From Bacteroidota bacterium (GTDB lineage Bacteria; Bacteroidota; Bacteroidia; Bacteroidales; Paludibacteraceae): DNA of 64,000 nucleotides. Location: NCBI GenBank assembly GCA_017860295.1, contig JAFNAS010000007.1, forward strand, positions 1 through 64,000. The letters are read 5' to 3'. Under the pieces are notes generated by a model. That model saw only the letters and a list, made by a program, of their open reading frames with translations, had not been told where the DNA came from and did not search any database. This document shows positions 15,323 through 64,000 of the stretch, piece by piece; the first letter of the stretch is position 1; every line of letters begins with the position of its first letter. Both the position numbers and the translations under genes were made by a program.

Positions 15323-15497
15323 TTAGAGGAATGCTGCTTTTTGCGGTAGCTTCTGCTTGATCGGAAGCATTACCAACATAAAGTTCGCCTTGCGGCAGTT
15401 TATTGTCTACCGGTACCCAGGCAGATCCGTTGTAGACATAGAAAGTACTGTCGGTGGTGTTGTAATAGGTACTTCCTGCGGTAGGAGAGGTCAGTTT
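15285..15497 (-). pseudogene. Double frame disruption joining two halves of one fibre-like gene
   Basis: Aligned with neighbouring repeat copies, about 23 nt are missing at about 15491-15496 (the codons between YVDSK and TSPTAG) and about 17 nt at about 15286-15288 (between DVAL and GVADPT). The three resulting frames are 15400-18459, an intermediate one ending at 15246, and 14294-15322. The whole 14294-18459 span is 4,166 nt; adding back 40 nt gives 4,206, exactly 1,402 codons. This supports one ancestral gene broken twice, either in nature or in assembly of a repetitive region. Confidence 0.7.
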
Positions 15498-18459: not shown

Positions 18460-18464
18460 GACTA

Positions 18465-23945: not shown

Positions 23946-23959
23946 ATTCTTTTCTCGTT

Positions 23960-39726: not shown

Positions 39727-39792
39727 TGATTGTGGACGTTTGCGTACACGGTAAAAAAGATTGTTATAGTTTTTAGAAATCATAAAATTAAG

Positions 39793-49348: not shown

Positions 49349-52300
49349 ATGCACAATTATTCAATGTTTATCAAAGTTAGATATTCGGTTGTTGCGCTGT
49401 TTTTATTTTTTGTACCGACAGTTGTTTTTGCCGGAAGCGCTCCAAAGAAGGGGATAAAACCCAGTTTGCCTCTCGAAAATACCAAACAAGGATTGGTGTA
49501 CACTCCTGACAGTCTGGGAAACCGTATCCCTGATTTTTCCTACAGCGGTTATATGGACGGTGAACAGGCAATCCCTGCTGTTTCCGCCAAAGTGGTTGTC
49601 CCGTTCAAAACGGGTGATGCCACCGCACGCATTCAGGCTGCAATCGATTACGTATCGTCACTCAGGCCGGATAAATCGGGTTTTAGAGGCGCAGTCCTTT
49701 TGCAACCCGGAACGTTTGAAGTACAAGGTCAACTGTTCATTCGTACTTCTGGAGTCGTGCTGAGAGGTAGTGGCATCGGCGAACACGGAACGAAGCTGGT
49801 TGCAACCGGCAAAGACCGTCGCACCCTGATTCGCGTGGTCGGTAAAGATGATCGCACGAAAGCTGAAGCGCTGAAAGTGGCCGACGCTTATGTTCCGGTC
49901 AATGCGATGAAACTGACGCTGAAGAATGTTGGTTCGTTGAAAGCCGGAGAAAAAATTATGGTTCGTCGTCCGAGTACCCAAAACTGGATTGAGACGCTGG
50001 GCACCGTAACTTTTGGGGGTGGAGTTTCTTCTCTCGGATGGAAGCCTGGTGACCGCGACATTTATTGGGACAGAACCGTCGTTGCCCTGAATGGGAATGA
50101 AATTACGCTGGATGCACCTCTGACAACCGCTCTTGATGCCAATTACGGCGGAGGTGAAGTGATTCCTTACACGTGGAACGGGAGAATAAGTCAGGTAGGT
50201 GTTGAAAATATGCAATGCACATCTACTGTTGATGCAGCCAATCCCAAAGACGAAGCTCATGCCTGGATGGCAATTACTCTTGAAAATGTAATCGATGGCT
50301 GGGTACGTCAAATTACCTTCTCACATTTTGCCGGTTCGGCTGTGATGGCGCTCGAGTCTTCACGCCGCCTCACGGTGGAAGATTGTATCTCGCAGGATCC
50401 GGTTTCCGAACTGGGAGGTCAACGTCGCTACACTTTTTTCAATGCCGGGCAGCAGTCGTTGTTTCAACGCTTATATGCCGAAGGCGGTAATCACGATTTC
50501 GGTGTTGGATTCTGTGCTGCCGGTCCCAATGCGTTTGTGCAATGCCAGTCGGTGTTGCCCTACAGTTTCAGCGGTGCGATCGATAGCTGGGCTTCCGGTG
50601 TTTTGTTCGATATTGTGAATGTAGACGGCAACAATCTTCGTTTTTCGAATCGCCAACAGGATAATCGTGGAACCGGATGGAGTGCAGCCAACAGTGTCTT
50701 CTATCAATGTTCGGCATCGTTGATTGATTGCCCGAAACCGCCGACTGCGCAAAATTGGGCGTTCGGGTGCTGGTCGCAATTTGGCGGTGATGGTGGGTGG
50801 TACGACTCCAACAACCAGATTCAGCCCCGCAGTCTCTACTATGCGCAATTGGTACAACGTCTTGGAGATGCGGTTAACGATCGCGCCGTATTGGTGGCAG
50901 TGGAGGGCGATCCCAATAGCAGTCCTCCCGTCAACATTGCGTTGCAGATGACTCAATTGGCAAAAAAAACAGCTCCAACCCTCTTTTCATTGATAGAAGA
51001 GGCTTCGGTGCGTAATCCCATTATTACCGAAGGGAAAGGGTTGAAGAGTATCGACGAAATTGGAGTTCCTGCTCCTAAAAAAATAAGTACACTCCCAACT
51101 GCCGTCATCAACGGAAAATTGATTCACGGCGATGAACTGCTGGCAGGAATGCAGCACAATACGCCCTGGTGGAATGGTAGTGTTCTGCCAACTTTTTTGG
51201 GTGAAGCCAAACCTGCACTCACCCGTTTTGTGCCGGGTCGTACCGGTACCGGTCTGACCGATGATGTGACCGAGGTGGCTGAGTGGATGAAGAAGAGCAA
51301 CATTGTATCTTTCGAACAACATTACGGGCTATGGACCGATCGCCGTCGCGATGACCACGAGCGCATTCGCCGCATCGACGGTGACGTGTGGCCCCCGTTT
51401 TACGAACAACCTTTTGCTCGTTCGGGTGAGGGCACTGCCTGGGACGGCCTGAGTAAATATGATCTCACCAAATACAACATCTGGTACTGGCTGCGTCTGA
51501 AGCAGTTCGCCGACTTGGCGGATCAAAACGGATTGGTATTGCTCCACAATAACTTCTTTCAACACAATATTATCGAGGCCGGCGCTCATTGGGTAGATTG
51601 TCCTTGGCGTACCGCCAACAATATCAACAGTACCGGATTTCCCGAACCCGTCAATTTTGCAGGAGATAAGCGCATTTTCTTTGCCGAAATGTTTTACGAT
51701 ACAACCAACGTGGTTCGCAAAGAGTTGTACAAAAAATATATCCGTCAGTGTTTGAATAACTTTGCCGAAAACAGTTCTGTTATTCAACTGACGAGTGACG
51801 AATATACCGGTCCGCTTCATTTCATGCAGTTCTGGCTCGACGTGATTGCCGCCTGGGAAAAAGAAACTGGCAAACATCCATTGATTGGGTTAAGCGCTAC
51901 CAAGGATGTGCAGGACGCAATACTGAAAGATCCGAAACGGGCAGCTGTGGTCGATGTGATCGATATTCGTTATTGGTTCTATCGCGACAATGGCACGGTA
52001 TATGCTCCTCAGGGAGGGCTCAATCTGGCACCGCGCCAACATGCTCGTTTGGTGAAACCCGGAAAAACATCTTTCGATCAGGTATACCGTGCCGTTAACG
52101 AATACCGTACCCAATGTCCCGACAAAGCGGTAATGTACTATTCGGACAATTACCCTACTTATGGATGGGCTGTTTTGATGGCCGGTGGATCCTTGCCCAA
52201 CTTGCCTGCCGGGCTGGAGAAGAATTTTCTGAAAGATGCTGCCCAGATGAGCGTCGTTAAATCGCAGGTCGAAGGCCAATATGTTCTCGGAAATATGGAG

Positions 52301-52501
52301 AGAGGATATATTGTCTATTCCAAAAACGGAAACGCGGTTCTCGATCTGAGCAGTGACAATAAAACGTTTGTTGCAAAATGGATTAATCCGGCTAACGGTG
52401 AAAGTGTTTCCGGAGAGAAGATCAAAGGAGGCAAACTTATGTCGTTGAAAGCTCCGAAATCAGAAGCAAACGTACTCTGGTTATCCGTAAAAAAGAAATA
52501 A
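49349..52501 (+). CDS. Secreted beta-helix protein fused to a DUF6298-type domain (1,050 aa)
   Basis: A signal peptide (VALFLFFVPTVVFA) is followed by a pectate-lyase-3-like parallel beta-helix from about 85 to 560 (ATARIQAAIDYVSSL, GAVLLQPGTFEVQGQLFI, VVLRGSGIGEHGT, VEDCISQDPVSELGGQRRYTF). A linker leads to a second half matching DUF6298 as I recall it: FEQHYGLWTDRRRDDHERI, DGDVWPPFYEQPFARS, HNNFFQHNIIEAGAHWVD, a probable TIM-barrel-like domain. A small C-terminal beta domain closes it. It probably acts on a rhamnogalacturonan fragment, but the reaction is unknown. Next in line is GH43, 72 nt away. Confidence 0.6.
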   Translation: MHNYSMFIKVRYSVVALFLFFVPTVVFAGSAPKKGIKPSLPLENTKQGLVYTPDSLGNRIPDFSYSGYMDGEQAIPAVSAKVVVPFKTGDATARIQAAIDYVSSLRPDKSGFRGAVLLQPGTFEVQGQLFIRTSGVVLRGSGIGEHGTKLVATGKDRRTLIRVVGKDDRTKAEALKVADAYVPVNAMKLTLKNVGSLKAGEKIMVRRPSTQNWIETLGTVTFGGGVSSLGWKPGDRDIYWDRTVVALNGNEITLDAPLTTALDANYGGGEVIPYTWNGRISQVGVENMQCTSTVDAANPKDEAHAWMAITLENVIDGWVRQITFSHFAGSAVMALESSRRLTVEDCISQDPVSELGGQRRYTFFNAGQQSLFQRLYAEGGNHDFGVGFCAAGPNAFVQCQSVLPYSFSGAIDSWASGVLFDIVNVDGNNLRFSNRQQDNRGTGWSAANSVFYQCSASLIDCPKPPTAQNWAFGCWSQFGGDGGWYDSNNQIQPRSLYYAQLVQRLGDAVNDRAVLVAVEGDPNSSPPVNIALQMTQLAKKTAPTLFSLIEEASVRNPIITEGKGLKSIDEIGVPAPKKISTLPTAVINGKLIHGDELLAGMQHNTPWWNGSVLPTFLGEAKPALTRFVPGRTGTGLTDDVTEVAEWMKKSNIVSFEQHYGLWTDRRRDDHERIRRIDGDVWPPFYEQPFARSGEGTAWDGLSKYDLTKYNIWYWLRLKQFADLADQNGLVLLHNNFFQHNIIEAGAHWVDCPWRTANNINSTGFPEPVNFAGDKRIFFAEMFYDTTNVVRKELYKKYIRQCLNNFAENSSVIQLTSDEYTGPLHFMQFWLDVIAAWEKETGKHPLIGLSATKDVQDAILKDPKRAAVVDVIDIRYWFYRDNGTVYAPQGGLNLAPRQHARLVKPGKTSFDQVYRAVNEYRTQCPDKAVMYYSDNYPTYGWAVLMAGGSLPNLPAGLEKNFLKDAAQMSVVKSQVEGQYVLGNMERGYIVYSKNGNAVLDLSSDNKTFVAKWINPANGESVSGEKIKGGKLMSLKAPKSEANVLWLSVKKK

Positions 52502-52573
52502 AAATCGGTTTTTACACGAAGACAGAAAAGATACACTTTGTTTTTTCGTGCTGATTTACAACTCTATAATATA

Positions 52574-53494
52574 ATGAAGAAATTGATTCTTTCGTTTTTG
52601 TTGATTTTTAGTCTTTTACCATTGGTAAACGCGCAAGATGCCTATCTGTTTGCCACGTTTCGTGAACCGCAGCAGGATGGGTTATTGCTTGTTGGAAGTA
52701 CCGATGGTTATCACTGGCAATCGCTGGGAGGCCCGTTCAATACGCCGGGTGTGGGTACTGATAAAATTATGCGGGATCCTTCTGTTTGTCGGGGATCCGA
52801 CGGCACGTTTTACATGGTATGGACCAGCAGCTGGACCAAAGATAGAGGCTTTGGCTATGCCAGTTCCAAAGACCTGATTCATTGGACTCCGTCGAAGTAT
52901 TACGAGGCAATGAAATATGAGCCTACAACGGTCAATACCTGGGCTCCGGAGGTTTTCTATGACGATGTGCACAAGCAGTTTATCATTATGTGGGCATCTA
53001 CCATTCCTTTCCGTTTCGAAAAAGGGCAGGAAGCCGAGGATAACAATCACCGCATGTATTACTGCACTACCAAAGATTTCAAAACTTTTTCCAAAACAAA
53101 ACTTTTCCTCGATCCGAAATTCAGTGTGATCGACTGCGTGTTGCTGAAACGCGCGCCGAAAGATTATGTGTTGATTCTCAAAGATAACACTCGCCCGGAG
53201 CGCGATGTAAAAGTAGCGTTTGCCAAATCGCCTCTGGGTCCGTTTACAACTCCCTCAGCGGCAATTACTCCTCATTTTACTGAAGGACCGACAGTGACGA
53301 AAGTAGGCGACGACTACCTGATCTATTTCGAGTTTTACAAGGATAAAAAGTATGGTGCGGTAAAAACCCACGACTTCAAATCGTTTACCGATGTAACAAA
53401 TGAAGTGTCTTTGCCTCAGGGACATAAGCATGGGACAATCTTCAAAGTGTCGCGTAAATTTTACGATCAGCTACTGCTTAATTTGAAAAAATAA
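52574..53494 (+). CDS. GH43-type five-bladed beta-propeller glycosidase
   Basis: I start at the ATG 52574 (MKKLIL), which gives a normal signal peptide (cut near VNA); the frame opens at 52538 without support. 306 residues, a single-domain GH43-like enzyme. Candidate catalytic residues are base Asp68 in MRDPS, pKa-tuning Asp187 in SVIDC and acid Glu237 in TEGPT; APEVFYD at about 125-130 is also typical. GH43 enzymes usually remove arabinofuranose, xylose or galactose. In this pectin locus an arabinofuranosidase or galactosidase is plausible. Confidence 0.78.
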   Translation: MKKLILSFLLIFSLLPLVNAQDAYLFATFREPQQDGLLLVGSTDGYHWQSLGGPFNTPGVGTDKIMRDPSVCRGSDGTFYMVWTSSWTKDRGFGYASSKDLIHWTPSKYYEAMKYEPTTVNTWAPEVFYDDVHKQFIIMWASTIPFRFEKGQEAEDNNHRMYYCTTKDFKTFSKTKLFLDPKFSVIDCVLLKRAPKDYVLILKDNTRPERDVKVAFAKSPLGPFTTPSAAITPHFTEGPTVTKVGDDYLIYFEFYKDKKYGAVKTHDFKSFTDVTNEVSLPQGHKHGTIFKVSRKFYDQLLLNLKK

Positions 53495-53510: not shown

Positions 53511-56500
53511 ATGACAAAAAAAATCATATCTGTTGTTGCGGTTTTAATGGTTTTGACGGCATCTGCACAAGAAGGTGTTTATTATACCGGCAAAACCTTG
53601 TCGAATGTCGATTATCACCATGGACAACTGGCTCCTGCTATTGGGGTGCACAATATTCAGGTGTTGCGTGTCAATCGCGAACATCCGGCTAATATGTCCG
53701 AAGGCTGGACCTACAATCACCAGCCTATGTTGTGTTATTGGAACAACCGGTTTTACATGGAATATTTGTCCGATCCCGTGGGCGAACACGAAGCTCCGGG
53801 TCGTACCTTGTTGATGAACTCTCAGGATGGTTACAACTGGAGCGAATCGACGGTGATCTTTCCAGAATACAAAGTGCCCGATGGTACCACCAAACCTGAT
53901 TTTCCGGGCGTGGCCAAAGATCTGATGGCGGTGATGCACCAACGCATGGGTTTTTATGTATCGACCAAGAACCGGCTCCTCGTTTTGGGATTCTACGGTA
54001 TTGCTTTTGGAGCAAAAGATGATCCCAACGATGGGAACGGCATTGGCCGTGTGGTGCGTGAGATACTACCCAATGGTAAGTTCGGCCCGATCTATTTTAT
54101 CCGTTACAACCATGCTTTCAACGAGAGTAATACCTCTTATCCGTTTTATACCAAAAGCAAGGACAAAGGTTTTGTGGCTGCCTGCAACGAACTCTTGGCA
54201 AACCCGCTGATGATGCTTCAATGGAACGAGGAATCCGACCGTAACGATCCGTTGATTCCTATTCATAAAGATTACAAAGCGTTTAATTTCTATCATTTGC
54301 CCGATGGCCGAGTGGTCGGCTTGTGGAAATTTGCATTGACAACCATCAGTCCAGACGGTGGTAAAACCTGGCCGGTGATGCCACAGCGTGGCAAAGGTTT
54401 TGTGAACAGCAATGCTAAAATCTGGGGACAACGCACCTCTGACGGGCGTTATGCTACGGTTTACAATCCTTCCGAATACCGTTGGCCGCTGGCCATTTCC
54501 ACTAGCGACGATGGTTTGGAATACAAAGACTTGCTGCTTGTTCATGGCGATATTACCCCGATGCGTTACGGCGGTGCCTACAAAAATCTGGGACCGCAAT
54601 ATGTGCGCGGAATCCTTGAGGGCAACGGCACGCCACCCGACAAAGACCTTTGGGTTACCTACAGCATGAACAAGGAGGATTTGTGGATCTCGCGCATACC
54701 TGTTCCCGTAACGGGCAAAGCTACAGCACAGGCCGACGACGTTTTCGATCGTTTTAACTCCATTCAGGAGATGACAAAATGGAACATTTACAGTCCGTTG
54801 AAGGCCCCTGTAAGCCTCGAAAAACGTGCAGATGGCAAACGTTGGCTGACACTCAAAGACAGCGATCCGTTCGATTATGCCAAAGTGGAACGCGTCGTTC
54901 CAGAATCAAAAAAACTGACGGCTGAATTTACAGTTGTTTCCGGTCAGAACGGGAATGGACAGCTCGATATCGAGTTTCAAAATTCCAAAGGACAAGCTTG
55001 CATTCGTTTGACCTTCGACAAAGACAGCGTCTTCAAATCAAAGAGCGGAGCCCGTTATTCCGGTATTTTGAAATATAAAGCCGGCGAAACCTATCGCGTA
55101 AAAGTGATGCTGGATGTATCCACTCGTAGCTATAAAATGGTGGTAAATGGCAAAGAGATTGCTACCCGCATCTTCTTTAATCCGGTTGAAGCGGTTTCGC
55201 GTGTTGTGTTCCGCACCGGCGAATTACCCATTGAGCCAACGCCAAACACTCCTGCCGATCGATTTACCGATCTGGTTAATCCGGGTACTTCCGACAAAGA
55301 AGCGATTTATTATCTGGAAAACTTCAAAACCTCCAGTCAGGATGACGATAACTCGGCTGCCGTGTTGAAAGCCGATGATTTCAAGCATTATGTGGATAAT
55401 TTCAACACGATGGAGAACGAAAATATTGCACAGGCAATTCCAAATTCCGAGTCGTGGAGCTGGATGAAGAAGAATGTTCCCTTGTTCGAATGTCCGCAAC
55501 AAAACATCGAGGAGATGTTTTACTACCGCTGGTGGACATTGCGCAAGCATATTAAACAAACACCTGATGGATATGCCTTTACCGAATTTTTGGTGCCCAG
55601 AACGTATGCCGACAAATACAATTTGATTAGCAGCGCGTTGGGACATCACATCTACGAGGCTCGCTGGTTGCGCGACCGTAAATACCTCGATGATTACCTC
55701 CATGTCTGGTATCGTGGCAACGAAGGGAAGCCGATGAACAAACTGCGCAAATTCAGCAGTTGGACAGCCAATGCTTTATACAACCGTTACCTCGTTGATG
55801 GAAATAAAGAGTTCTTGTTGGGCATGTATCCTGATTTGCAGGCCGACTATGCCGCATGGGAAGGCGATCACCGCTTGCCGAGCGGATTGTATTGGCAGGG
55901 TGATGTGCAGGACGGCATGGAAGAGACCATCAGTGGCGGCCGTAAAAAGAAGTATGCCCGTCCGACCATCAATAGCTACATGTTTGGCAATGCTCAGGCA
56001 CTGGCGGCTATTGCCGATTTGAAAGGCGATAAAGCAACCGAAAAGAGCTACCTTCTGAAAGCTGATACGCTGAAACAGTTGGTTCAAACACAGCTTTGGA
56101 ACAAGGATTCTCTTTTCTTCGAAACCTTGCGCGAGCCGGGTAAACTGGCTCAGGCTCGTGAAGCGGTCGGATTTCTTCCCTGGTATTTCAATTTGCCGGA
56201 TAAGGGCAAAGGATTTGAGGTTGCATGGAAACAGTTGACCGATACCAAGGGCTTTTCTGCTCCTTTCGGTTTGACAACCGCCGAACGTCGTCACCCGCAG
56301 TTCCGTACGCATGGTGTGGGCAAATGTGAGTGGGATGGTGCGGTATGGCCGTTCGCCACTTCGCAAACATTGACCGCACTTGCCAACGCAAAAAACAATT
56401 ACGATGCCAACGTGGTGAGCGATAGCGTTTACTTTGCCCTGATCAATCAATATGTGGAGAGCATGCATTACCGCGGTCGTCCCTACGTGGGCGAATACCT

Positions 56501-56825
56501 CGACGAGGTGACCGGTTACTGGTTGAAAGGTGACCAGGAACGAAGCCGCTATTATAACCATTCCACATTCAATGATCTGGTTATTACCGGACTGGTAGGT
56601 CTCCGTCCTCGTGCCGATGAAACGATAGAGATTAATCCGTTGGTTCCTGCAAAACAGTGGGATTGGTTTTGTTTGGACAACGTGCCGTATCACGGTAAAA
56701 CGCTGACCATTGTTTGGGATAAAGACGGTGGTAAATACAATCTTGGCAAAGGATTGATGTTGTTTGTCAATGGAGAGAAAATGGCCTCAAGACCGACTTT
56801 AGAAAAATTGATTTACAAGCAATAA
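53511..56825 (+). CDS. Two-domain glycoside hydrolase resembling GH143-GH142 (Dha hydrolase / beta-L-arabinofuranosidase)
   Basis: 1,104 residues with a signal peptide (VAVLMVLTASAQ). Residues about 22-410 form a sialidase-like propeller with Asp-box-like turns (NSQDGYNWSES, ISPDGGKTWPVM, STSDDGLEY). About 420-600 is a concanavalin-like sandwich (DVFDRFNSIQEMTKWN, SYKMVVNGKEIA). About 640-1100 is an (alpha/alpha)6 barrel (EEMFYYRWWTLRKHI, FSSWTANALYNRYL, KCEWDGAVWPFATSQTLTAL, TFNDLVITGLVGLRP). This order and size match, from memory, the RG-II enzyme BT1020 of Bacteroides thetaiotaomicron: GH143 frees the acid sugar Dha and GH142 removes the beta-L-arabinofuranose attached to it. It starts 16 nt after GH43. 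If this assignment is wrong, a generic sialidase-like/GH63-like fusion is the alternative. Confidence 0.65.
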   Translation: MTKKIISVVAVLMVLTASAQEGVYYTGKTLSNVDYHHGQLAPAIGVHNIQVLRVNREHPANMSEGWTYNHQPMLCYWNNRFYMEYLSDPVGEHEAPGRTLLMNSQDGYNWSESTVIFPEYKVPDGTTKPDFPGVAKDLMAVMHQRMGFYVSTKNRLLVLGFYGIAFGAKDDPNDGNGIGRVVREILPNGKFGPIYFIRYNHAFNESNTSYPFYTKSKDKGFVAACNELLANPLMMLQWNEESDRNDPLIPIHKDYKAFNFYHLPDGRVVGLWKFALTTISPDGGKTWPVMPQRGKGFVNSNAKIWGQRTSDGRYATVYNPSEYRWPLAISTSDDGLEYKDLLLVHGDITPMRYGGAYKNLGPQYVRGILEGNGTPPDKDLWVTYSMNKEDLWISRIPVPVTGKATAQADDVFDRFNSIQEMTKWNIYSPLKAPVSLEKRADGKRWLTLKDSDPFDYAKVERVVPESKKLTAEFTVVSGQNGNGQLDIEFQNSKGQACIRLTFDKDSVFKSKSGARYSGILKYKAGETYRVKVMLDVSTRSYKMVVNGKEIATRIFFNPVEAVSRVVFRTGELPIEPTPNTPADRFTDLVNPGTSDKEAIYYLENFKTSSQDDDNSAAVLKADDFKHYVDNFNTMENENIAQAIPNSESWSWMKKNVPLFECPQQNIEEMFYYRWWTLRKHIKQTPDGYAFTEFLVPRTYADKYNLISSALGHHIYEARWLRDRKYLDDYLHVWYRGNEGKPMNKLRKFSSWTANALYNRYLVDGNKEFLLGMYPDLQADYAAWEGDHRLPSGLYWQGDVQDGMEETISGGRKKKYARPTINSYMFGNAQALAAIADLKGDKATEKSYLLKADTLKQLVQTQLWNKDSLFFETLREPGKLAQAREAVGFLPWYFNLPDKGKGFEVAWKQLTDTKGFSAPFGLTTAERRHPQFRTHGVGKCEWDGAVWPFATSQTLTALANAKNNYDANVVSDSVYFALINQYVESMHYRGRPYVGEYLDEVTGYWLKGDQERSRYYNHSTFNDLVITGLVGLRPRADETIEINPLVPAKQWDWFCLDNVPYHGKTLTIVWDKDGGKYNLGKGLMLFVNGEKMASRPTLEKLIYKQ

Positions 56826-56835
56826 ACATAAGCAA

Positions 56836-59742
56836 ATGCGTTGCAATTTTAACTTCAGACCTCTCCTCCTAACCTCCTCTCCCGGAGGAGAGGAGGAACG
56901 CTTTTGCAAAAACAGGATGAGTCCTTTGTTGTGCAGATGTTTTACCCCTCTCCTTGGGAGAGGGGCAGGGGAGAGGTCGGTACATTGCAAGCGATTTTTA
57001 TTGTCCATGTTTTTGCTGGCTTTCGTTTTATTGGTTCCAGGCACAGCTTCAGCCATCACCGCTTCCAAAATCACTTGCGAGATGGCTGTTAATCCGCTTG
57101 CAGTTACCACTACGACTCCCCGTTTTGGCTGGGAGTTATGGTCAGGTGTGAATGATGATAAGCAGACGGCCTACGAACTGGAATTGTTTTCTTCTCAGGT
57201 AAAATTGATTTGGAAGAGTGGCAAAATAAAATCGGATGCGAGTCAGTTTGTTCAGTATAAAGGATCTTATCCATTAAAAAGGGGAGAGGAATATATTTGG
57301 CGGGTTCGTGTGTGGGATGCCAAAGATAAGGTATCTGATTGGCGTAAGGCACGTTTTTTTGTCGCACCTGATGAGGCATTTCTCGATGCCCAATGGATCG
57401 GTGCGGTGACCAAATCCGACTCACATCTTCCGGTTGGAAAGAGTTATCACATGCCTTCCAAAAAGTCTCCGGAGAATGTTGCCATGCTCAAAAATTTCGA
57501 CAGTATGGCGTTGCGCAGCATCATGCTTCGGAAAGATTTTAAAGCAGAAGCATCAGTAAAAAAAGCAACGGTTTATGTTTGTGGACTGGGTCATTATCAG
57601 TTTTCTATTAATGGAAAGAAAATTGGGAACAGCGACTTTGCGCCACTCTGGAGCGACTATTCAAAGACGGTTTATTACAATACTTACGATGTGGGCGTTT
57701 TGATCGAAAAAGGTGAAAATGCTATTGGAGTCGTTCTTGGCAATGGTTTTTACAATACCATTAGCACCCGTTACAGCAAGTTGTGGCGCACATACGGACC
57801 TCCGACTCTGTTTTTCAAGATGGTGGTGGAGTATGCCGATGGCAGAAAAGAGATCATTCGTTCCGATCAAAGCTGGAAATTGGCGCCGAGCCCCATCACG
57901 TTCAATAGTATTTATGGCGGCGAGGATTATGATGCTAATCTGGAGCAACCGGGTTGGAATGTTGCTGGTTTTAACGATTCCAAATGGCGAAATGTTGTGT
58001 TGCAGGAGGCTCCGGAAGGGAAACTGACTGCTCAGACAGCGCCTTTTGTTCAGATCAATAAACAATATGCTGTCAAGAAGCTGAAGCATCTTTCCGACTC
58101 GGTCTATGTGCTCGATATGGGTCAAAATCTATCGGGTTTTCCGTCCATTAAAATTCATGGTAAAAAGGGGCAGACTGTCCGCTTGTGGGTGGGAGAGTCG
58201 CTCGATAAGGATGGAAAGGTAAGCCAGAAACGAACCGGTGCTCCCTACTATTTTCAATATACGCTCAAAGGAGTAGGGGAGGAAGAATGGCAACCGATGT
58301 TCAGCTATTACGGCTATCAGTATATTCAGGTGGAAGGCGCCGATGTACGGAAATCACCATCAGGAAGCACGTTGCCGCTGATCACCGACATCAAATCGAA
58401 TTTTGTCTACTCTTCGGCAGCCGAAGTGGCCACTTTCGATTGCTCAAATGAGATTTTCAATAAAACGCACTGGTTGATTAACAATGCCATCAAGAGCAAT
58501 TTTCAGGGCGTGATGACCGATTGTCCGCAGCGCGAAAAGCTGGGATGGATAGAAGAGTTGCATCTCAACGGTCCGGGTCTGCTCATGAACTACGACATGT
58601 CGACCATGTTCCCGAAAATTTTGCGGGATATGAGCGATGCGCAACATGCCGATGGTTTGGTCCCGAGTATTTGTCCCGAATATGTGCGCTTTGCCGAACA
58701 CTCAGCAGCTGACTTTGCCGATTCTCCCGAATGGGGTTGTGCCTCCATCGTGGTGCCGTGGATGTACTATTGGCATTATGGCGATCAGTCATTGATTCGC
58801 AATTATTATTCCGTGATGACCCGCTACGTCGATTATCTCGGGACGAAAGCAACCGGGCATATTTTGTCGCATGGCTTGGGCGACTGGTACGATTACGGGG
58901 TGAAACCGGCAGGATATTCACAGAACAGTTCCATCGCAATTTCGGCTACTTCACATTATTACCTCTCGGCAATGCTGGTGGCCAAAGCTGCGGCACTATT
59001 GGGCATTGCTCAGGATACACTCAAATACGGGCAGTTGATGCGTGACATCCAAAAGGCTTACAACGAACGCTTTTTCAATAAATCGACCCGTCAATACGAC
59101 ATCGGGAGCCAGTTTGCCAACGCCGTCTCTTTGTACCTCGGTTTGGTGGAACCGCAATATCGCCAGGCTGTTTTGAAAAACCTTACCGACGACATTGCTT
59201 ATCACGACGATCGTCTTACGACCGGCGATGTGGGCAATCGTTATCTTTTTCAAATCCTGGCCGATAATGGGCAGAACGAACTGATGTACAAAATGGTGAA
59301 TCACTACGATGCTCCGGGTTATGGCTTTCAGTTGAAATACGGTTTGACTACGCTGACTGAGCAGTGGGATCCGCGCAAAGGCAATTCGTGGAACCATTTT
59401 ATGATGGGGCAAATTGAGGAATGGTTCTTCAACACGCTGGCAGGTATCCGTTACGATGAAAAACAACCCGGGTTCAAGCATATTATTTTGCGGCCGACAC
59501 CAGTGGGCGATCTGAAGAATGTGTCGGCTTCGACAGAAACATTGTACGGAAAGGTGTCCGTAGCCTGGACAAAGACCGAAAAACAGTTCAATCTGAAGGT
59601 TGCGATTCCTGTCAATACAACTGCGACGGTGACATTGCCTTTTGCGGCGACTTCGGTACGTGTCAACGACAGAACCATGACAGTGAAGGACAATGCGGTG
59701 GAATTGGGTTCGGGAAAATGGGAGATTACAATTGATTTATAA
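56836..59742 (+). CDS. GH78 alpha-L-rhamnosidase with element-interrupted signal peptide
   Basis: It releases terminal alpha-L-rhamnose. 968 codons from the ATG at 56836, 10 nt after the previous stop. Domains in order: fibronectin-like start (PLAVTTTTPRFGWEL), beta-sandwich with DAQWIGA and YVCGLGHYQFSINGKKIG, then the (alpha/alpha)6 barrel with TDCPQREKLGWIEELHLNG. This is a variant of the usual DCPQRDERLGWTGD catalytic loop, with Glu in place of the second Asp. LTEQWDP and WNHFMMGQIEEWFF follow, then a C-terminal beta domain. Codons 5-52 come from an inserted palindromic element; without it the start would read MRCKRFLLSMFLLAF..., a normal signal peptide. Expression may now rely on a start at 57001 or 57007. 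Confidence 0.85.
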   Translation: MRCNFNFRPLLLTSSPGGEEERFCKNRMSPLLCRCFTPLLGRGAGERSVHCKRFLLSMFLLAFVLLVPGTASAITASKITCEMAVNPLAVTTTTPRFGWELWSGVNDDKQTAYELELFSSQVKLIWKSGKIKSDASQFVQYKGSYPLKRGEEYIWRVRVWDAKDKVSDWRKARFFVAPDEAFLDAQWIGAVTKSDSHLPVGKSYHMPSKKSPENVAMLKNFDSMALRSIMLRKDFKAEASVKKATVYVCGLGHYQFSINGKKIGNSDFAPLWSDYSKTVYYNTYDVGVLIEKGENAIGVVLGNGFYNTISTRYSKLWRTYGPPTLFFKMVVEYADGRKEIIRSDQSWKLAPSPITFNSIYGGEDYDANLEQPGWNVAGFNDSKWRNVVLQEAPEGKLTAQTAPFVQINKQYAVKKLKHLSDSVYVLDMGQNLSGFPSIKIHGKKGQTVRLWVGESLDKDGKVSQKRTGAPYYFQYTLKGVGEEEWQPMFSYYGYQYIQVEGADVRKSPSGSTLPLITDIKSNFVYSSAAEVATFDCSNEIFNKTHWLINNAIKSNFQGVMTDCPQREKLGWIEELHLNGPGLLMNYDMSTMFPKILRDMSDAQHADGLVPSICPEYVRFAEHSAADFADSPEWGCASIVVPWMYYWHYGDQSLIRNYYSVMTRYVDYLGTKATGHILSHGLGDWYDYGVKPAGYSQNSSIAISATSHYYLSAMLVAKAAALLGIAQDTLKYGQLMRDIQKAYNERFFNKSTRQYDIGSQFANAVSLYLGLVEPQYRQAVLKNLTDDIAYHDDRLTTGDVGNRYLFQILADNGQNELMYKMVNHYDAPGYGFQLKYGLTTLTEQWDPRKGNSWNHFMMGQIEEWFFNTLAGIRYDEKQPGFKHIILRPTPVGDLKNVSASTETLYGKVSVAWTKTEKQFNLKVAIPVNTTATVTLPFAATSVRVNDRTMTVKDNAVELGSGKWEITIDL
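56847..56984. mobile_element. Palindromic MITE/REP-like element inserted in the GH78 signal-peptide codons
   Basis: The core 56858-56978 has matching inverted ends (GACCTCTCC ... GGAGAGGTC) and two internal hairpins (CCTCTCCCGGAGGAGAGG; CCCCTCTCCTTGGGAGAGGGG). TTGCAA occurs on both sides (56841-56846 and 56985-56990), like a target duplication. Element plus one TTGCAA is 144 nt, exactly 48 codons, and removing it restores a continuous signal peptide in frame. No protein is encoded by the element itself. Confidence 0.75.
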
Positions 59743-59756
59743 TTATATAATTAGCA

Positions 59757-60662
59757 ATGCAAAAAAGATTTTCAGGTGTAGTGGTACCGATGATTACACC
59801 GCTCAAAAAAGACTTTACGGTTGATGTAGATGCTGTTGCCGTTATTATGAAACGTTTTGCCCAACACGACATTCATCCCCTGGTATTGGGAACAACCGGC
59901 GAATCAAGTTCGGTTGACGAAAAAGAGAGCCTTCGTTTTGTAGAGGCCGCTGTCAGGGCAAAAAGTCCGGGACAGTGTGTTTATGCTGGTTTGGTTGGCA
60001 ATCAGGTAGCCGAACTGATCAAGCGTGGCAATCAGTTTATCGAATTGGGTGCTGATGTAGTTGTGGCCACATTGCCGTCGTACTACATCCTTACGCCGGA
60101 TCAGATGGTGGCGTTTTACACACAGTTGGCCGACAATGTGAAAGGTCCGGTGATGATGTACAACATCAAAGCTACCACGCAGATGTCTATTCCTTTGAAC
60201 GTAGTTGCCAAGCTGAGCAATCATCGGAATATCTGGGGATTGAAGGATTCGGAACGTGATGCCGACCGTATGAAAGCGTGCATCGAAGGCTATAAACATA
60301 GAGCTGATTTCGCTTATTTCTGCGGTTGGGGCGCACAAAGCTTCGGCAGTTTGCAATTGGGTGCCGACGGCGTGGTACCGAGTACCGGAAACATTGTGCC
60401 TGAACTGTACGGTAAGTTGATGGATGCAGCAAAAGCCGGCGATTGGAAAACGACTCAACATTATCAGGAACTGACCGATAAAGTGGGGGTAGTTTATCAG
60501 AAAGATCGTACGTTGGGCGAGTCGCTGGCTTCGTTGAAGGTGTTGATGAACCATGAGGGCATTTGCGGTACTACGATGATGCCTCCGTTGACAGAGCTGA
60601 CTGCCGAACGTAATCAGCAGATTATCGACAGTTTCGAAGCATTGAAAAAAGAATTGAAATAA
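59757..60662 (+). CDS. DHDPS/NanA-family aldolase (second copy)
   Basis: 301 residues. GTTGES (45-50), Tyr135 in MMYNIKAT and Schiff-base Lys163 in IWGLKDSE mark the pyruvate-lyase TIM-barrel family. It differs strongly from the copy at 39793, so the two likely handle different substrates. It starts 14 nt after GH78 and 9 nt before the symporter, so it belongs to the PUL transcript. Context suggests retro-aldol cleavage of a 2-keto-3-deoxy acid set free by the GH143-like enzyme (Dha), or of Kdo. No export signal, so it is cytoplasmic. Confidence 0.85.
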   Translation: MQKRFSGVVVPMITPLKKDFTVDVDAVAVIMKRFAQHDIHPLVLGTTGESSSVDEKESLRFVEAAVRAKSPGQCVYAGLVGNQVAELIKRGNQFIELGADVVVATLPSYYILTPDQMVAFYTQLADNVKGPVMMYNIKATTQMSIPLNVVAKLSNHRNIWGLKDSERDADRMKACIEGYKHRADFAYFCGWGAQSFGSLQLGADGVVPSTGNIVPELYGKLMDAAKAGDWKTTQHYQELTDKVGVVYQKDRTLGESLASLKVLMNHEGICGTTMMPPLTELTAERNQQIIDSFEALKKELK

Positions 60663-60671
60663 CACAGATAA

Positions 60672-62213
60672 ATGAACCAGGAACCTATTCATTGGATTGA
60701 CGGCCTGATTGTTGCGGCCTCGGTGATTTTTACAATCGGCACCGGATTTTATTTTGCACGACGTCAGAAGAGTTCGGATCGATATTTCTCAGGAAGTAAA
60801 AATATTCCTTCCTGGGCGATCGGTATTTCCATCTTTGCCACACTGTTGAGCAGTGTGACCTTTTTGGCCTATCCGGCAGCAGCCTACAAGTCGAACTGGA
60901 TTTTGCTGGTACAGGGTCTGATGGTGCCGGTGGTACTGGTCGGTCTGATCGGATTTATCGTACCGCTGTTCAGAAAAGCAATTAAATTAAGTACGTACGA
61001 ATATTTTGAGCGTCGTTTCGGGGTGTTTGCCCGCATGTACAGCTCTGTAGCGTTTTTGCTGACCCACTTTTCGAAGATGGGAACAGTACTTTATTTAGTA
61101 AGTATCGCATTAAGTAGTTTCACCCATTTTCCGGTGCTGACTGTGATGCTGGTACTTTCTACAGCAATCATTATTCTAACTGTTTTTGGGGGAATGGAAG
61201 CTGTAATCTGGATGGATGTGATTCAGGGAGGCTTGTTGATTGGTGGCGGATTGCTCTGTTTGGGCATCCTCTTGTTCCGTCCCGAAGGCGGACCAACAGT
61301 GGCTTTGAGTCAGGCTTTCCAAATGGGAAAAATTGATGTCGGGCCGTTCAATTTCAGCTTTTCCGAGCTCACTTTTTGGGTGATGTTAGTTAACGGAGCC
61401 TTTTATGCGCTGCAAAAATATGGTACCGATCAAACCATCGTACAACGTTATCTGGCCGCTAAGTCGGATAAAGACGCGAAACATGCTGCGTTGATCGGGG
61501 TTATCATGAGCGTTTGTGTCTGGACATTGTTTATGCTGATCGGTTCGTTGCTGTATGTGTATTATCACAACGGAACAGCAACCTTGCCCGAAGGCATTTC
61601 GGCCGATAAGGTATTCCCTCTTTTTATCAGTACGCAGTTGCCGGTAGGTGCTGTTGGATTGGTACTGGCTGCATTGGTGGCTGCTGCGCTTGCCAGTTTG
61701 CAATCCGATCTGAACTGTATTTCGGCTATTGGAATCGCCGACTATTATCGCCGTTTTAAGCCTAATAGCACGGATAAACAGCAGTTACGGATGGGTCGGA
61801 TTTTGGTATTGGTTGCCGGTATCCTGATGATGACGGTGGCTTACCTTTATGTTACCTGGGAAGGCGAAGGTGTCCTCGGGGTTGTCTTCGGATTGTATGC
61901 CATCTTCTCGGCCGGTATCGTGGGGATCTTCCTGTTGGGATTACTCTCCCGTCGTGCTAACTGGCAGGGTTTGTACATCGGGATTGCAGTGTGCATCTTG
62001 TTTACAGCTTATGCCGTTCTGACAACAACAAAGATCGACGATACGCCGATTCTCGATCTGGGGGAATTCAATTTTCCGCATCACAAATATATGTTGGGTG
62101 TTTATAGCCACATCATCGTGTTGGTGGTGGGTTACATTGCCAGCCTCTTCTTCAAATCGGAACCGGCTGACGAGCACCTGACCATTTATGGGTATATAAA
62201 AAGCAAAAAATAA
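60672..62213 (+). CDS. Sodium:solute symporter (SSS family)
   Basis: 513 residues with about 13-14 membrane helices. Family motifs are the N-terminal FYFARRQKSSDRYFSGSKNIPSW-type segment, ISIFATLLSSVTFLAYPA, FGGMEAVIWMDVIQGG and QRYLAAKSDKDAKHA. It imports a small acid, sugar or sugar acid across the inner membrane with Na+. It sits between an aldolase and a dehydrogenase, so the cargo is probably a monosaccharide or sugar acid made in the periplasm by the PUL enzymes, for example Dha or Kdo. SSS members are too diverse to fix the substrate from sequence. Confidence 0.88.
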   Translation: MNQEPIHWIDGLIVAASVIFTIGTGFYFARRQKSSDRYFSGSKNIPSWAIGISIFATLLSSVTFLAYPAAAYKSNWILLVQGLMVPVVLVGLIGFIVPLFRKAIKLSTYEYFERRFGVFARMYSSVAFLLTHFSKMGTVLYLVSIALSSFTHFPVLTVMLVLSTAIIILTVFGGMEAVIWMDVIQGGLLIGGGLLCLGILLFRPEGGPTVALSQAFQMGKIDVGPFNFSFSELTFWVMLVNGAFYALQKYGTDQTIVQRYLAAKSDKDAKHAALIGVIMSVCVWTLFMLIGSLLYVYYHNGTATLPEGISADKVFPLFISTQLPVGAVGLVLAALVAAALASLQSDLNCISAIGIADYYRRFKPNSTDKQQLRMGRILVLVAGILMMTVAYLYVTWEGEGVLGVVFGLYAIFSAGIVGIFLLGLLSRRANWQGLYIGIAVCILFTAYAVLTTTKIDDTPILDLGEFNFPHHKYMLGVYSHIIVLVVGYIASLFFKSEPADEHLTIYGYIKSKK

Positions 62214-62293
62214 ATTTCAATGTTGAAACTTGTGATCGTTCAAACGTTGTGTCGGTTCAACGATTACACATTCAAAGCATAAACGACTCTCTA

Positions 62294-63442
62294 ATGAATT
62301 CTGTAGTTTTACAACAACCGGGAACCATTGTTTTCGGAGAAAATAGTATACAACAACTGGTCGAATGCCGGTTTATTACATCATCCGAGCAAATATTAAT
62401 GCTGGTTGCCACTCCTCTTTTAGGGGCGTTGGCACCTTCTGTTGACGCTATTAAAGCTTCCGGCAAAAAGGTGGAAGTGGTGGAATATAATTTTCCCGGA
62501 GAACCTACCTTTGCACAATTCGATACATTACTGACAATTTCGGAAAAGTTCAACCCCGATTGCATTATCGGCATAGGGGGCGGTAGCGTTCTCGATTGCG
62601 CAAAATTGTTGGCTGCGCTTACCGGAAATACTCAAAAACTGGCGGAAGTAGTTGGTATCGGTATTCTCAATGGTCGTACACGTAAATTGATTTGTGTGCC
62701 GACTACATCGGGAACCGGCAGCGAAATGTCGCCCAATGCTATTCTGCTCAACGAAGCAACTTTGGCAAAAAGCGGTATCATCAGTCCCTATCTTGTTCCG
62801 GATGCCTGCTTTATCGATCCGGTACTGACGGCTTCATTGCCTGCAAAACTGACTGCCGAAACGGGTATGGATGCTCTTTCGCACTGCATCGAGGCATTTA
62901 CCAATAAGTTTGCCCATCCGGCAGTCGATACGTATGCATTGAAAGGAATTGAGCTGATAGCGGCAAACCTTCAATGTGCCTGCGAAAACGGGAAAGACAT
63001 GGAAGCCCGTGCCGCTTTGGCGCTGGGATCGATGTACGGAGGCTTGTGTCTGGGTCCGGTCAATACTTCGGCCATTCATGCTTTGTCGTATGGTTTGGGA
63101 GGAAAATTCCATGTACCGCACGGCTTGGCCAATGCCATCCTGATGCCAGAAGTCCTCCGTTTCAATATGATGGCATCGCTTGAGCGTCATGCGCGGCTTG
63201 CACTGGCGTTGGGCGTAGAAAAGCAATCGACTGATGAGGCTACAGCGTTGGCAGGTATCGAAAAGATTGCTGCTATATCAAAAGCATGCGGCATCCCGCA
63301 ACATTTGTCGGAGATTGGCATCGGCAAAGAAGACTTGTCCGAACTGGCCGATATTGCCATGAACGTGACCCGATTGCTGAAGAACAATCCGCGTGAAGTA
63401 ACCAAAGCGGATGCAATAGAAATTTATACGAAACTATTATAA
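62294..63442 (+). CDS. Iron-containing alcohol dehydrogenase
   Basis: 382 residues from the ATG at 62294 (MNSVVLQQPG); the frame upstream to 62249 has no family match. It has the NAD(P)-binding GIGGGSVLDCAKLLA, PTTSGTGSEMSP, and metal-site segments DPVLTASLPAKLTAETGMDALSHCIEAF and NTSAIHALSYGLGGKFHVPHGLANA. The group III family reduces aldehydes or oxidises alcohols with Fe or Zn. Placed between an acid-sugar aldolase and pdxA, a good guess is reduction of the C4 aldehyde acid formed by the aldolase to threonate. Lactaldehyde reduction from rhamnose breakdown is the main alternative. Confidence 0.85.
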   Translation: MNSVVLQQPGTIVFGENSIQQLVECRFITSSEQILMLVATPLLGALAPSVDAIKASGKKVEVVEYNFPGEPTFAQFDTLLTISEKFNPDCIIGIGGGSVLDCAKLLAALTGNTQKLAEVVGIGILNGRTRKLICVPTTSGTGSEMSPNAILLNEATLAKSGIISPYLVPDACFIDPVLTASLPAKLTAETGMDALSHCIEAFTNKFAHPAVDTYALKGIELIAANLQCACENGKDMEARAALALGSMYGGLCLGPVNTSAIHALSYGLGGKFHVPHGLANAILMPEVLRFNMMASLERHARLALALGVEKQSTDEATALAGIEKIAAISKACGIPQHLSEIGIGKEDLSELADIAMNVTRLLKNNPREVTKADAIEIYTKLL

Positions 63443-63533
63443 CGTGTAACCGTTGAATCGAGTAATCGTTAAGTAGTGAGGCTGCAGATTGACGATTAAA
63501 CGATCAACAATTGAACCATTAAACAAAGGTTTT

Positions 63534-64000
63534 ATGAACCCGATTATAGGAATTAGCATGGGCGATCCCGCCGGGATTGGTCCTGAAATATGTATCAAAG
63601 CGCTGTCGGATGCTACTGTTTACGAACGTTGCCGTCCGGTGGTGATTGGTGATGCGGCCGTGATGGCTCAGGCTGCCACACTGTTGAATGCTCCGCTCAA
63701 GGTAAATGCAATCGAAAAAATTGCCGATGCAACCTTTGCTTTCGGAACGGTGGACGTGTACGATCTGAAGAACGTTACTCTTTCGGAACTCAAGCCGGGT
63801 GAAGTGTCGGCTATGGCGGGGAATGCTGCTTTCGAGGCTGTGCATAAAGTGATTGAACTGGCTTTGGCCAACGAAGTGGATGCTACGGTTACCGCTCCCA
63901 TCAACAAAGAGTCGATTCACAAAGCAGGGCACCATTTTTCGGGTCATACCGAAATTTATGCTCATTATACCAATACAGCCAAATATGCCATGTTGCTGGC
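63534..64000 (+). CDS. pdxA: PdxA-family 4-phosphate dehydrogenase (partial, runs off right edge)
   Basis: 155 codons are visible. MGDPAGIGPEI near the N-terminus and TAPINKESIHKAGHHFSGHTE with metal-binding His are diagnostic. PdxA oxidises 4-phospho-hydroxy-L-threonine for vitamin B6. The close PdxA2 group instead oxidises and decarboxylates 4-phospho-D-threonate (or erythronate) to DHAP. The visible part cannot separate them, but the setting in a sugar-acid cluster favours the catabolic form. A DUF1537 kinase would be expected just beyond the edge. Confidence 0.85.
   Translation, partial: MNPIIGISMGDPAGIGPEICIKALSDATVYERCRPVVIGDAAVMAQAATLLNAPLKVNAIEKIADATFAFGTVDVYDLKNVTLSELKPGEVSAMAGNAAFEAVHKVIELALANEVDATVTAPINKESIHKAGHHFSGHTEIYAHYTNTAKYAMLL

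What the first reader, a model, noticed from the sequence alone, without database searches (positions are those of the whole stretch)
53511..64000. Predicted complete catabolic route for the RG-II sugar acid Dha
Seen: a GH143-GH142-like enzyme, then GH78, a DHDPS-family aldolase, an SSS symporter, an Fe-type alcohol dehydrogenase and pdxA, all co-directional. Known: RG-II carries Dha (3-deoxy-D-lyxo-2-heptulosaric acid), and PdxA2 with a DUF1537 kinase turns D-threonate into DHAP. Inference: cleaving Dha between C3 and C4 gives pyruvate plus a C4 aldehyde acid. Keeping the D-lyxo centres C5 and C6 and reducing the aldehyde gives D-threonate exactly, the known DtnK/PdxA2 substrate. The gene order therefore spells release, uptake, aldol cleavage, reduction, phosphorylation and oxidative decarboxylation to DHAP. 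I know of no described Dha catabolic pathway.
Basis: partly seen in the sequence, partly recalled or inferred. Interest (0 to 1): 0.9.

Follow-up and report, generated by a model that had tools for sequence, protein, structure and literature searches.

The report
Predicted breakdown pathway for pectin sugar Dha
A five-gene block beside a pectin-digesting enzyme looks like a route by which bacteria turn Dha, a rare acid sugar of the plant polymer RG-II, into ordinary metabolites; its chemistry is still untested.

Summary
53511-56825 is a full-length BT_1020-type (GH143-GH142) enzyme (1642 bits to PDB 5mqr), followed by GH78, a DHDPS-family aldolase (ALD1), an SSS symporter, an Fe-ADH and pdxA.

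ALD1-SSS-ADH-PdxA2-DUF1537 is a conserved unit: complete in 59 of 80 related loci, in two gene orders. In 247 genomes of the order, all 8 block genomes have strong GH143 (14 of 247 overall). Of 79 genomes behind the 80 loci, 75 match GH143. Block PdxA is split from housekeeping PdxA. A second aldolase in the locus (39730) is of another group, whose relatives sometimes sit beside FucI and ribulokinase, which would fit Kdo.

Against: six loci lack the ADH; two of five phylum-level block genomes lack GH143; 18 of 21 strong-GH143 genomes there lack ALD1. No reaction was assayed. Best reading: Dha -> pyruvate + D-threuronate -> D-threonate -> DHAP + CO2, a new pathway built from known enzyme families.

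The parts
53511..56825 (+). GH143-GH142 enzyme (BT_1020 type), signal-peptide-like N-terminus (by eye); predicted to release Dha after removal of its arabinose cap
   Evidence: PF24067 4e-121, PF22585, PF22422; 1642 bits to PDB 5mqr over 18-1101; GH143 activity from a passage of PMC6811678
56836..59742 (+). GH78 alpha-L-rhamnosidase (true start probably further downstream)
   Evidence: PF17389 2.7e-98, PF08531 1.8e-56
59757..60662 (+). ALD1: DHDPS-family aldolase, predicted Dha aldolase
   Evidence: PF00701 2.7e-39; none of the 7 NCBIfam models listed reaches its cut-off; model pLDDT 96.7 with DHDPS/NAL fold; Tyr135 and Lys163 invariant in 51 aligned sequences
60672..62213 (+). SSS-family sodium:solute symporter, predicted Dha importer
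   Evidence: PF00474; TIGR00813 206.5 bits against cut-off 184
62249..63442 (+). iron-type alcohol dehydrogenase, predicted D-threuronate reductase (probable start about 62294)
   Evidence: PF00465 + PF25137; best NCBIfam models ErcA, lactaldehyde reductase, sulfoacetaldehyde reductase and 4-hydroxybutyrate dehydrogenase, all below cut-off
63489..64000 (+). PdxA2-type dehydrogenase, predicted to act on 4-phospho-D-threonate; runs past the window to contig position 64562 (probable start about 63534). The block's fifth gene, the DUF1537 kinase, follows outside the window at contig position 64559-65737 (+)
   Evidence: PdxA: PF04166 7.2e-111; second PdxA of the genome on contig C22; block clade split 100/100 from housekeeping PdxA. 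Kinase: PF07005 + PF17042; best NCBIfam model D-threonate kinase NF047819, below cut-off; 8 of 8 Foldseek hits at E<=0.001 of a close homologue's model are DUF1537-family entries by title or by sequence search
49349..53494 (+). Upstream partners seen beside GH143 elsewhere too: DUF6298 protein (49349-52501) and GH43-like enzyme (52538-53494)
   Evidence: PF19815 and PF04616; homologues near GH143 in several other genomes
39730..40728 (+). ALD2: second DHDPS-family aldolase of the locus, candidate Kdo aldolase
   Evidence: PF00701 200.6 bits; relatives beside FucI (4 of 14 regions) and ribulokinase (2 of 14); group supported 98/99, apart from ALD1

Best explanation
[quoted passage not shown] GH142 removes the arabinose cap and GH143 frees Dha outside the cytoplasm (known for this family; by homology here). 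The SSS symporter imports it (inferred). ALD1, a Schiff-base aldolase, cleaves C3-C4 to pyruvate and D-threuronate (2,3-dihydroxy-4-oxobutanoate; inferred). The Fe-ADH reduces the aldehyde to D-threonate (inferred). The DUF1537 kinase makes 4-phospho-D-threonate and PdxA2 oxidises and decarboxylates it to DHAP (known chemistry of these families; inferred here). Net: Dha + ATP -> pyruvate + DHAP + CO2. It is redox-neutral if the NADH spent by the ADH is regained by PdxA2, which would suit a fermenter.
For: Five-gene unit complete in 59 of 80 related loci, 55 in the window's order and 4 in a second order. In the order sample block genomes are a subset of strong-GH143 genomes: 8 of 8 against 14 of 247, Fisher 9.8e-12, not corrected for kinship but spread over 6 families. 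75 of 79 genomes behind the 80 loci match PF24067, and a 76th (L080) carries a BT_1020-type hit outside that model's region. GH143 lies within 10 kb of the block in 11 of the 80 loci, among them Echinicola, Anditalea, Niastella and Larkinella. Block PdxA is an extra copy (8 of 8 block genomes have two PdxA matches, though the second of G111 and G211 is divergent, against 1 of 6 block-free GH143 genomes) and a separate clade. D-threonate kinase is the best NCBIfam model for 5 of 5 block kinases tested. Chemistry: by my reasoning only Dha among RG-II's sugars gives a C4 acid aldehyde on one retro-aldol step, and its stereocentres give D-threonate; D-threonate kinase plus 4-phospho-D-threonate dehydrogenase to DHAP is in a passage of PMC10079672. 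Kdo has another candidate aldolase in the same locus. ALD1 lacks the acidic pair of NanA: position 192 is A/G/T and 193 is A in 27 of 27 rows (26 picked loci plus the window, of 79 ALD1 sequences at hand).
Against: No assay. Six loci lack the ADH (four with full flanks, L095 and L134 near a contig end), and their genomes hold only 23-29% identical relatives. Five of 80 loci have ALD1 with room on the contig but no PdxA or kinase in the stretch held. In the phylum sample of 395, two of five block genomes (G399, G501) have no GH143 match, and 18 of 21 strong-GH143 genomes lack ALD1; in the order 6 of 14 lack it. G131 and G715 have an ALD1-like gene without the block. The kinase, ADH and D-threonate-4-phosphate dehydrogenase models all score below their curated cut-offs, while PdxA passes the general PdxA model TIGR00557. 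The DapA arginine recalled to bind the acceptor carboxylate is Thr or Ser in ALD1. The 80 loci are the best-scoring of at least 559, not a random draw.
Confidence: 0.74

Rival explanations
1. The block serves Kdo, the other ulosonic acid of RG-II, with ALD1 giving pyruvate and D-arabinose.
For: Kdo and Dha occur in the same polymer, so genome co-occurrence alone cannot separate them. FucI, which could serve D-arabinose, also lies in 2 of 80 ALD1 loci (L142, L145).
Against: D-arabinose is no substrate for a tetronate kinase or PdxA2, yet both clusters are found in 63 of 80 ALD1 loci. ALD2 more often has partners that Kdo would need: full-length FucI in 4 of 14 and ribulokinase in 2 of 14 regions (against 2 and 0 of 80 for ALD1), and none of the 14 has ADH, PdxA or DUF1537. 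FucI may also serve L-fucose: one of the four regions (L199) has a fucP gene over cut-off beside it.
Confidence: 0.08
2. The block is a D-threonate (or other tetronate) pathway for free C4 acids, and the aldolase acts on some other keto acid, such as a 2-keto-3-deoxy aldonate or aldarate from pectin hexuronates.
For: D-threonate use by a kinase and a 4-phospho-D-threonate dehydrogenase is known (PMC10079672 passage). Two block genomes have no GH143 match. Four-gene forms without ADH exist.
Against: A free-tetronate pathway needs no aldolase or aldehyde reductase, yet both are kept with the kinase and PdxA in 59 of 80 loci over two gene orders. GH143 matches 75 of 79 of these genomes, against 14 strong (17 at E<=1e-3) of 247 in the order sample.
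Confidence: 0.13
3. The block degrades Dha, but also or mainly from other sources such as the scales of green algae, with RG-II only one source (a variant of the best explanation, not exclusive of it).
For: Dha occurs in prasinophyte scales and thecae (PMC10762512 passages). G399 and G501 carry the block without a GH143 match, near genes whose best NCBIfam models are sulfatases, below cut-off.
Against: GH143 is present in 8 of 8 block genomes of the order and 75 of 79 of the wider set, and the window's block sits inside a pectin PUL.
Confidence: 0.15

Closest known systems
D-threonate catabolism by DUF1537 kinase (DtnK) and PdxA2
   Same: Same kinase and dehydrogenase families; end product DHAP (PMC10079672 passages; PdxA2 as a hard-to-annotate paralog in PMC9997740 passages; names DtnK/PdxA2 and Zhang 2016 recalled)
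   Different: Here D-threonate would be made inside the cell by an aldolase and a reductase; neither step is mentioned in the passages seen
Galactarate/glucarate pathway (aldolase, tartronate semialdehyde reductase, glycerate kinase; recalled)
   Same: Same logic: retro-aldol of a 2-keto-3-deoxy aldarate, reduction of the semialdehyde acid, phosphorylation
   Different: One carbon longer here, other kinase family, extra oxidative decarboxylation; no dehydratase needed because Dha is already 3-deoxy-2-keto
Sialic acid catabolism (NanA lyase; SSS-type sialate importers recalled)
   Same: Aldolase of the same superfamily; Dha is called a seven-carbon sialic acid analogue (PMC6811678 passage)
   Different: ALD1 lacks the acidic pair of NanA's pocket and the downstream enzymes are unrelated
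B. theta RG-II utilisation (Ndeh 2017, recalled; paper not held)
   Same: Homologous GH143-GH142, GH78 and neighbours
   Different: GH143 genomes G133, G019 and G165, whose loci carry close homologues of the window's GH143 and GH78, have neither ALD1 nor DUF1537
[quoted passage not shown] PMC10580937 passages)
   Same: An aldolase and a DUF1537 kinase in one cluster for C4 acids
   Different: There the free C4 acids are first oxidised to 2-oxo-tetronate; the sequence and role of that aldolase were not compared here

Membership tests
GH143-GH142 (BT_1020 type) | Full-length two-module homology to BT_1020 | tested here: met
   1642 bits to 5mqr over residues 18-1101; PF24067
GH143-GH142 (BT_1020 type) | Hydrolysis of Dha from RG-II | not testable with these tools
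   needs an assay
DHDPS/NAL class I aldolase superfamily | Fold and catalytic Lys/Tyr | tested here: met
DHDPS (DapA) proper | NCBIfam dapA cut-off and the substrate-binding Arg (recalled) | tested here: not met
   135.9 bits against cut-off 206; Arg is Thr in 26 of 27 and Ser in 1
N-acetylneuraminate lyase | NanA cut-off and acidic pair in the pocket (recalled) | tested here: not met
   TIGR00683 66 bits against 382; acidic pair absent in 27 of 27
DUF1537 tetronate kinase | Both Pfam domains over cut-off and same fold | tested here: met
   PF07005 108.9 against 25 bits; PF17042 28.4 against 28.3 bits, barely; 8 of 8 Foldseek hits at E<=0.001 are DUF1537-family, query-TM 0.46-0.78 (model of homologue L072:9409-10584, 86% identical)
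D-threonate kinase (NF047819) | Equivalog cut-off 450 bits | tested here: not met
   107.1 bits, N-terminal part only, though best model; 112.8-138.5 bits in four homologues
PdxA2 | PdxA paralog apart from the vitamin B6 PdxA, in a tetronate-kinase locus | tested here: met
   extra copy; 100/100 split; next to DUF1537
PdxA2 | NCBIfam D-threonate 4-phosphate dehydrogenase cut-off (NF002891) | tested here: not met
   354.1 against 583 bits; passes general TIGR00557, 364 against 290
PdxA2 | 4-phospho-D-threonate dehydrogenase activity | not testable with these tools
   needs an assay
Fe-type alcohol dehydrogenase | Pfam Fe-ADH domains | tested here: met
   PF00465, PF25137
SSS symporter | TIGR00813 cut-off | tested here: met
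   206.5 against 184 bits

The most novel reading that the evidence does not exclude
A hitherto undescribed pathway for Dha, widespread in Bacteroidota, redox-neutral to pyruvate, DHAP and CO2, with an undescribed Dha aldolase and D-threuronate reductase, paired in the same locus with a Kdo aldolase (ALD2; in some relatives with FucI and ribulokinase), so that both ulosonic acids of RG-II are accounted for. GH143 bacteria without the block would release Dha that they cannot use by this route and could feed it to others.
Probability: 0.66. Interest if true: 0.82.

Novelty: new variant of a known kind. Interest (0 to 1): 0.74.

Why it matters
RG-II is among the most complex plant glycans and its depolymerisation by gut bacteria has been worked out (Ndeh 2017, recalled), but the open papers I searched do not say what bacteria do with the rare acid Dha. 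A concrete route names two missing activities (Dha aldolase, D-threuronate reductase) and gives genomes a marker for Dha use. It would explain why an extra PdxA and a DUF1537 kinase sit in pectin loci, where they may be mistaken for a vitamin B6 gene and an orphan kinase. It also raises a testable split between bacteria that release Dha and bacteria that can use it.

Tried and rejected
Kdo as substrate of ALD1: rejected for now because the downstream enzymes do not fit and ALD2 more often has fitting partners. A plain DapA or NanA identity for ALD1: rejected. Chance adjacency: rejected. Housekeeping PdxA: rejected. A replacement reductase in the six ADH-less loci was looked for by eye among their ORFs and as a relative of the window's ADH in the genomes; only remote Fe-ADH relatives were found. 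GH143 further along the contigs of G399 and G501 (about 20 kb more on each side) was not found. No ALD1, ALD2, DUF1537 or PdxA hit at E<=1e-8 was found in the 20-kb GH143 regions of the 9 block-free phylum-sample genomes that I fetched, of 18. Pocket geometry could not be inspected, because no coordinate file of the models was found. The fold searches only confirm superfamily membership.

Rows dropped: the own DapA of contig C21 could not be extracted and was left out of the aldolase tree; the two divergent PdxA of G111 and G211 were left out of the PdxA tree; A3 used 50 loci plus the window, A4 38 of 60 kinases, the aldolase tree and pocket table 26 loci plus the window, the PdxA tree 19 picked loci. 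ALD2 regions were fetched for 14 of the 16 other ALD2 genomes, G108 and G176 left out. ALD1 is not strictly monophyletic, because the block-free G131 gene falls inside it, and E. coli rows have long branches.

Literature: RG-II with DUF1537, heptulosaric with catabolism and D-threonate with rhamnogalacturonan gave 0 papers; searches showed no title on Dha catabolism, but some lists were cut (20 of 57, 25 of 43, 40 of 88). The library holds open-licence papers only; Ndeh 2017 and Zhang 2016 are not held, so what I say of them beyond other papers' passages is recalled.


Full report
WHAT IS THERE. The window is positions 1-64000 of contig C4 (180,693 bases) of a 3.39-Mb, 96% complete genome. The closest ALD1 relatives in a scan of species genomes, at 94-96% identity, are a Paludibacter MAG and a Bacteroidota MAG, so the genome is probably a Paludibacter-like member of Bacteroidales (inference). 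From 49349 to beyond the window runs a co-directional series: DUF6298 protein, GH43-like, GH143-GH142, GH78, ALD1 (DHDPS family), SSS symporter, Fe-ADH, PdxA, then, outside the window, a DUF1537 kinase, GH28, an esterase, GH95, SusC, SusD and GH106. Gaps between the genes from GH143 to the kinase are 9-46 nt or a 4-nt overlap by the listed starts. This is a pectin (RG-II-type) PUL with sugar-acid catabolic genes inside it.

THE RELEASING ENZYME. The 53511 protein matches PDB 5mqr over nearly its whole length at 1642 bits and the Pfam BT_1020 propeller at 4e-121. A passage of PMC6811678 states that GH143 was created for a bimodular B. [quoted passage not shown] A passage of PMC12282258 gives side chains C and D as the carriers of the acidic sugars Dha and Kdo, with chain D ending in beta-1,5-Araf.

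THE KINASE PREDICTION. It is the next gene (64559-65737), overlapping pdxA. Its best NCBIfam model is D-threonate kinase, at 107 bits against a cut-off of 450 and over the N-terminal part only; the same model is best in four homologues, also below cut-off. A structure model of a close homologue (L072; pLDDT 92.7) has 8 hits at E<=0.001: six say DUF1537 in their titles and the other two, both 3dqq, appear in the sequence search with the family.

CONSERVATION. In 247 genomes of the same order, strong GH143 (E<1e-80) occurs in 14 (17 at E<=1e-3), DUF1537 in 13 and ALD1 (E<=1e-40) in 9. Eight of the 9 ALD1 genomes have the full five-gene block, two of them (G006, G064) rearranged as ADH-ALD-PdxA-DUF1537-SSS, and all 8 have strong GH143; the ninth (G131) has the aldolase alone. 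Fisher p for block and GH143 is 9.8e-12; kinship is not corrected, but the block spans 6 families and strong GH143 11. Of the five genomes with DUF1537 but no block, one has strong GH143 (p 0.26). A scan of GTDB species genomes returned the best 80 loci of at least 559: 59 have all five genes (55 in the window's order, 4 in the other); 12 have a contig end within 6 kb right of the aldolase; 4 lack only the ADH, as do two of those 12; and 5 have ALD1, with or without the symporter, but no PdxA or kinase in the stretch held. Of 79 genomes behind these loci (L115 left out, same MAG as L111), 75 match GH143 at E<=1e-3; the four misses are L080, L081, L121 and L149, and L080 itself carries a BT_1020-type hit over query residues 253-1100, cut by the contig end.

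RESULTS AGAINST A SIMPLE STORY. In a phylum-wide draw of 395 genomes, ALD1 is in 6 and strong GH143 in 21, with 3 in common including the window's own genome. The block is present in 5 of the 6 (in G501 the symporter lies about 23 kb upstream; G715 has the aldolase alone). Two of these five, G399 and G501, have no GH143 match; their surroundings hold proteins whose best NCBIfam models are sulfatases, below cut-off, and, in G501, a GH28 52% identical to the window's. Dha is also known from green-algal scales (PMC10762512 passages), which may be their source. Conversely 18 of 21 strong-GH143 genomes there, and 6 of 14 in the order, lack ALD1. So the block is not the general fate of Dha. In six loci the ADH is missing, with only remote relatives (23-29% identity) elsewhere in those genomes; another reductase must serve there, or the scheme is incomplete.

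PDXA2. All 8 block genomes have two PdxA matches, though the second of G111 and of G211 is divergent (84-88 bits); 5 of 6 block-free GH143 genomes have one, and the sixth (G176) has a second one beside another DUF1537 gene. In a tree of 40 PdxA, the 27 block sequences plus the G176 pair gene, which has a long branch, are split from 12 housekeeping sequences with 100/100 support (the two divergent PdxA left out). PdxA2 is described as a hard-to-annotate paralog for organic acid catabolism (PMC9997740 passages). The window's PdxA passes the general model TIGR00557 and not the D-threonate-4-phosphate dehydrogenase model.

KDO AS THE CONTROL. The same PUL holds a second aldolase, ALD2 (39730-40728), one of three PF00701 genes of the genome. 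The 15 ALD2 rows form one group (98/99) apart from ALD1. ALD2 is found in 17 of 247 genomes, 11 of them with strong GH143. In 14 ALD2 regions none has ADH, PdxA or DUF1537 hits; 4 have full-length FucI and 2 ribulokinase, and L203 has ribulokinase, ALD2, symporter and FucI together. In the 80 ALD1 loci full-length FucI occurs in 2 (L142, L145; a fucP lies in L142) and ribulokinase only as two weak partial hits. FucI plus ribulokinase is what Kdo would need: pyruvate plus D-arabinose, then D-ribulose and its phosphate (FucI acting on D-arabinose is recalled). But FucI can equally serve L-fucose, and in L199 a fucP over cut-off lies nearby. So the Kdo assignment of ALD2 is a lead, and with it the argument by exclusion that Dha is left for ALD1; the tetronate kinase and PdxA2 beside ALD1 carry more weight.

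CHEMISTRY. Dha has OH left, left, right at C4, C5, C6 in Fischer projection (D-lyxo). Cleavage of C3-C4 gives pyruvate and an aldehyde acid that keeps C5 and C6. Reduction of the aldehyde and renumbering from the carboxyl end gives C2 left, C3 right, that is D-threonate (2S,3R). [quoted passage not shown] By my reasoning no other RG-II sugar gives a C4 acid in one retro-aldol step.

INDEPENDENT RG-II LINK. In five Prevotella-type loci (L085, L086, L094, L096, L100) the block is near a split transketolase, an FGGY kinase and a Fucose_iso_C isomerase; L112 has the kinase and isomerase, L087 and L095 the isomerase (families from one representative of each cluster; the kinase is closest to glycerol kinase models). 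In G358 the block is near a glycerol-kinase-like FGGY kinase and a transketolase C-terminal half, with an ABC sugar transporter and an N-terminal half read by eye. This resembles D-apiose pathways (recalled), and apiose is also an RG-II sugar (PMC6353982 and PMC7939467 passages).

NOVELTY. Ten literature searches were made; no title listed is on Dha catabolism (some lists were cut, see Tried and rejected), and a 2025 RG-II review has no occurrence of 'catabol' or 'aldolase' (PMC12168206, term search and passages). Subscription papers are not covered. All enzyme families are known; the pathway, and two of its activities, appear not to be described. I rate it a new variant of a known kind.

Noticed in passing
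window 39730-40728; L203:6026-13036; L190:5049-9525; L191:5404-11857: Second DHDPS-family aldolase (ALD2), in some relatives beside a symporter, FucI and ribulokinase: a candidate Kdo module.
   Followed up: partly
PDB 4xky against window 39796-40725: The B. thetaiotaomicron structure deposited as DHDPS is the closest solved relative of ALD2 (383 bits, next best 137), so it may be a sugar-acid aldolase rather than the lysine enzyme.
   Followed up: partly
L085, L086, L094, L096, L100, L112; L216:9888-18971: The block lies near a possible D-apiose operon (split transketolase, FGGY kinase, in Prevotella an isomerase) in Prevotella-type loci and in G358.
   Followed up: partly
L092, L095, L112, L125, L134, L149: Four-gene versions without the Fe-ADH; the genomes have only remote Fe-ADH relatives.
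   Followed up: yes
L212, L213, L229, L231: Block without a GH143 match in two genomes (G399, G501), near sulfatase-like proteins; possible algal Dha source.
   Followed up: partly
L218-L226: Nine GH143-bearing genomes of the phylum sample without ALD1 or ALD2 hits near GH143; how they dispose of Dha is open.
   Followed up: partly
L123, L130, L079: MAGs titled Paenibacillus, Bacillota and Flavobacterium carry the block; L079 groups with Paludibacter in both trees. Mis-binning or transfer.
   Followed up: no
L111 and L115: One MAG (Mgla_MAG_8-bin_20) has two block loci about 98% identical in DNA on different contigs.
   Followed up: partly
window 1-14283 (-): Giant 4761-aa frame, open at the window's edge, with kelch, TIG and fn3 domain hits.
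   Followed up: no
window 15403-27813 (-): Two of three large proteins have phage tail-fibre-like Pfam hits (PF03906, PF22337), next to a T9SS sorting-tail protein at 27319-27813.
   Followed up: no
window 56836-57050; L149:12594; L213:10673: N-terminal extensions of GH78 and of two PdxA ORFs look alike by eye (PLLGRG/PLGRG-type), perhaps a translated intergenic repeat; true starts probably lie further in.
   Followed up: no
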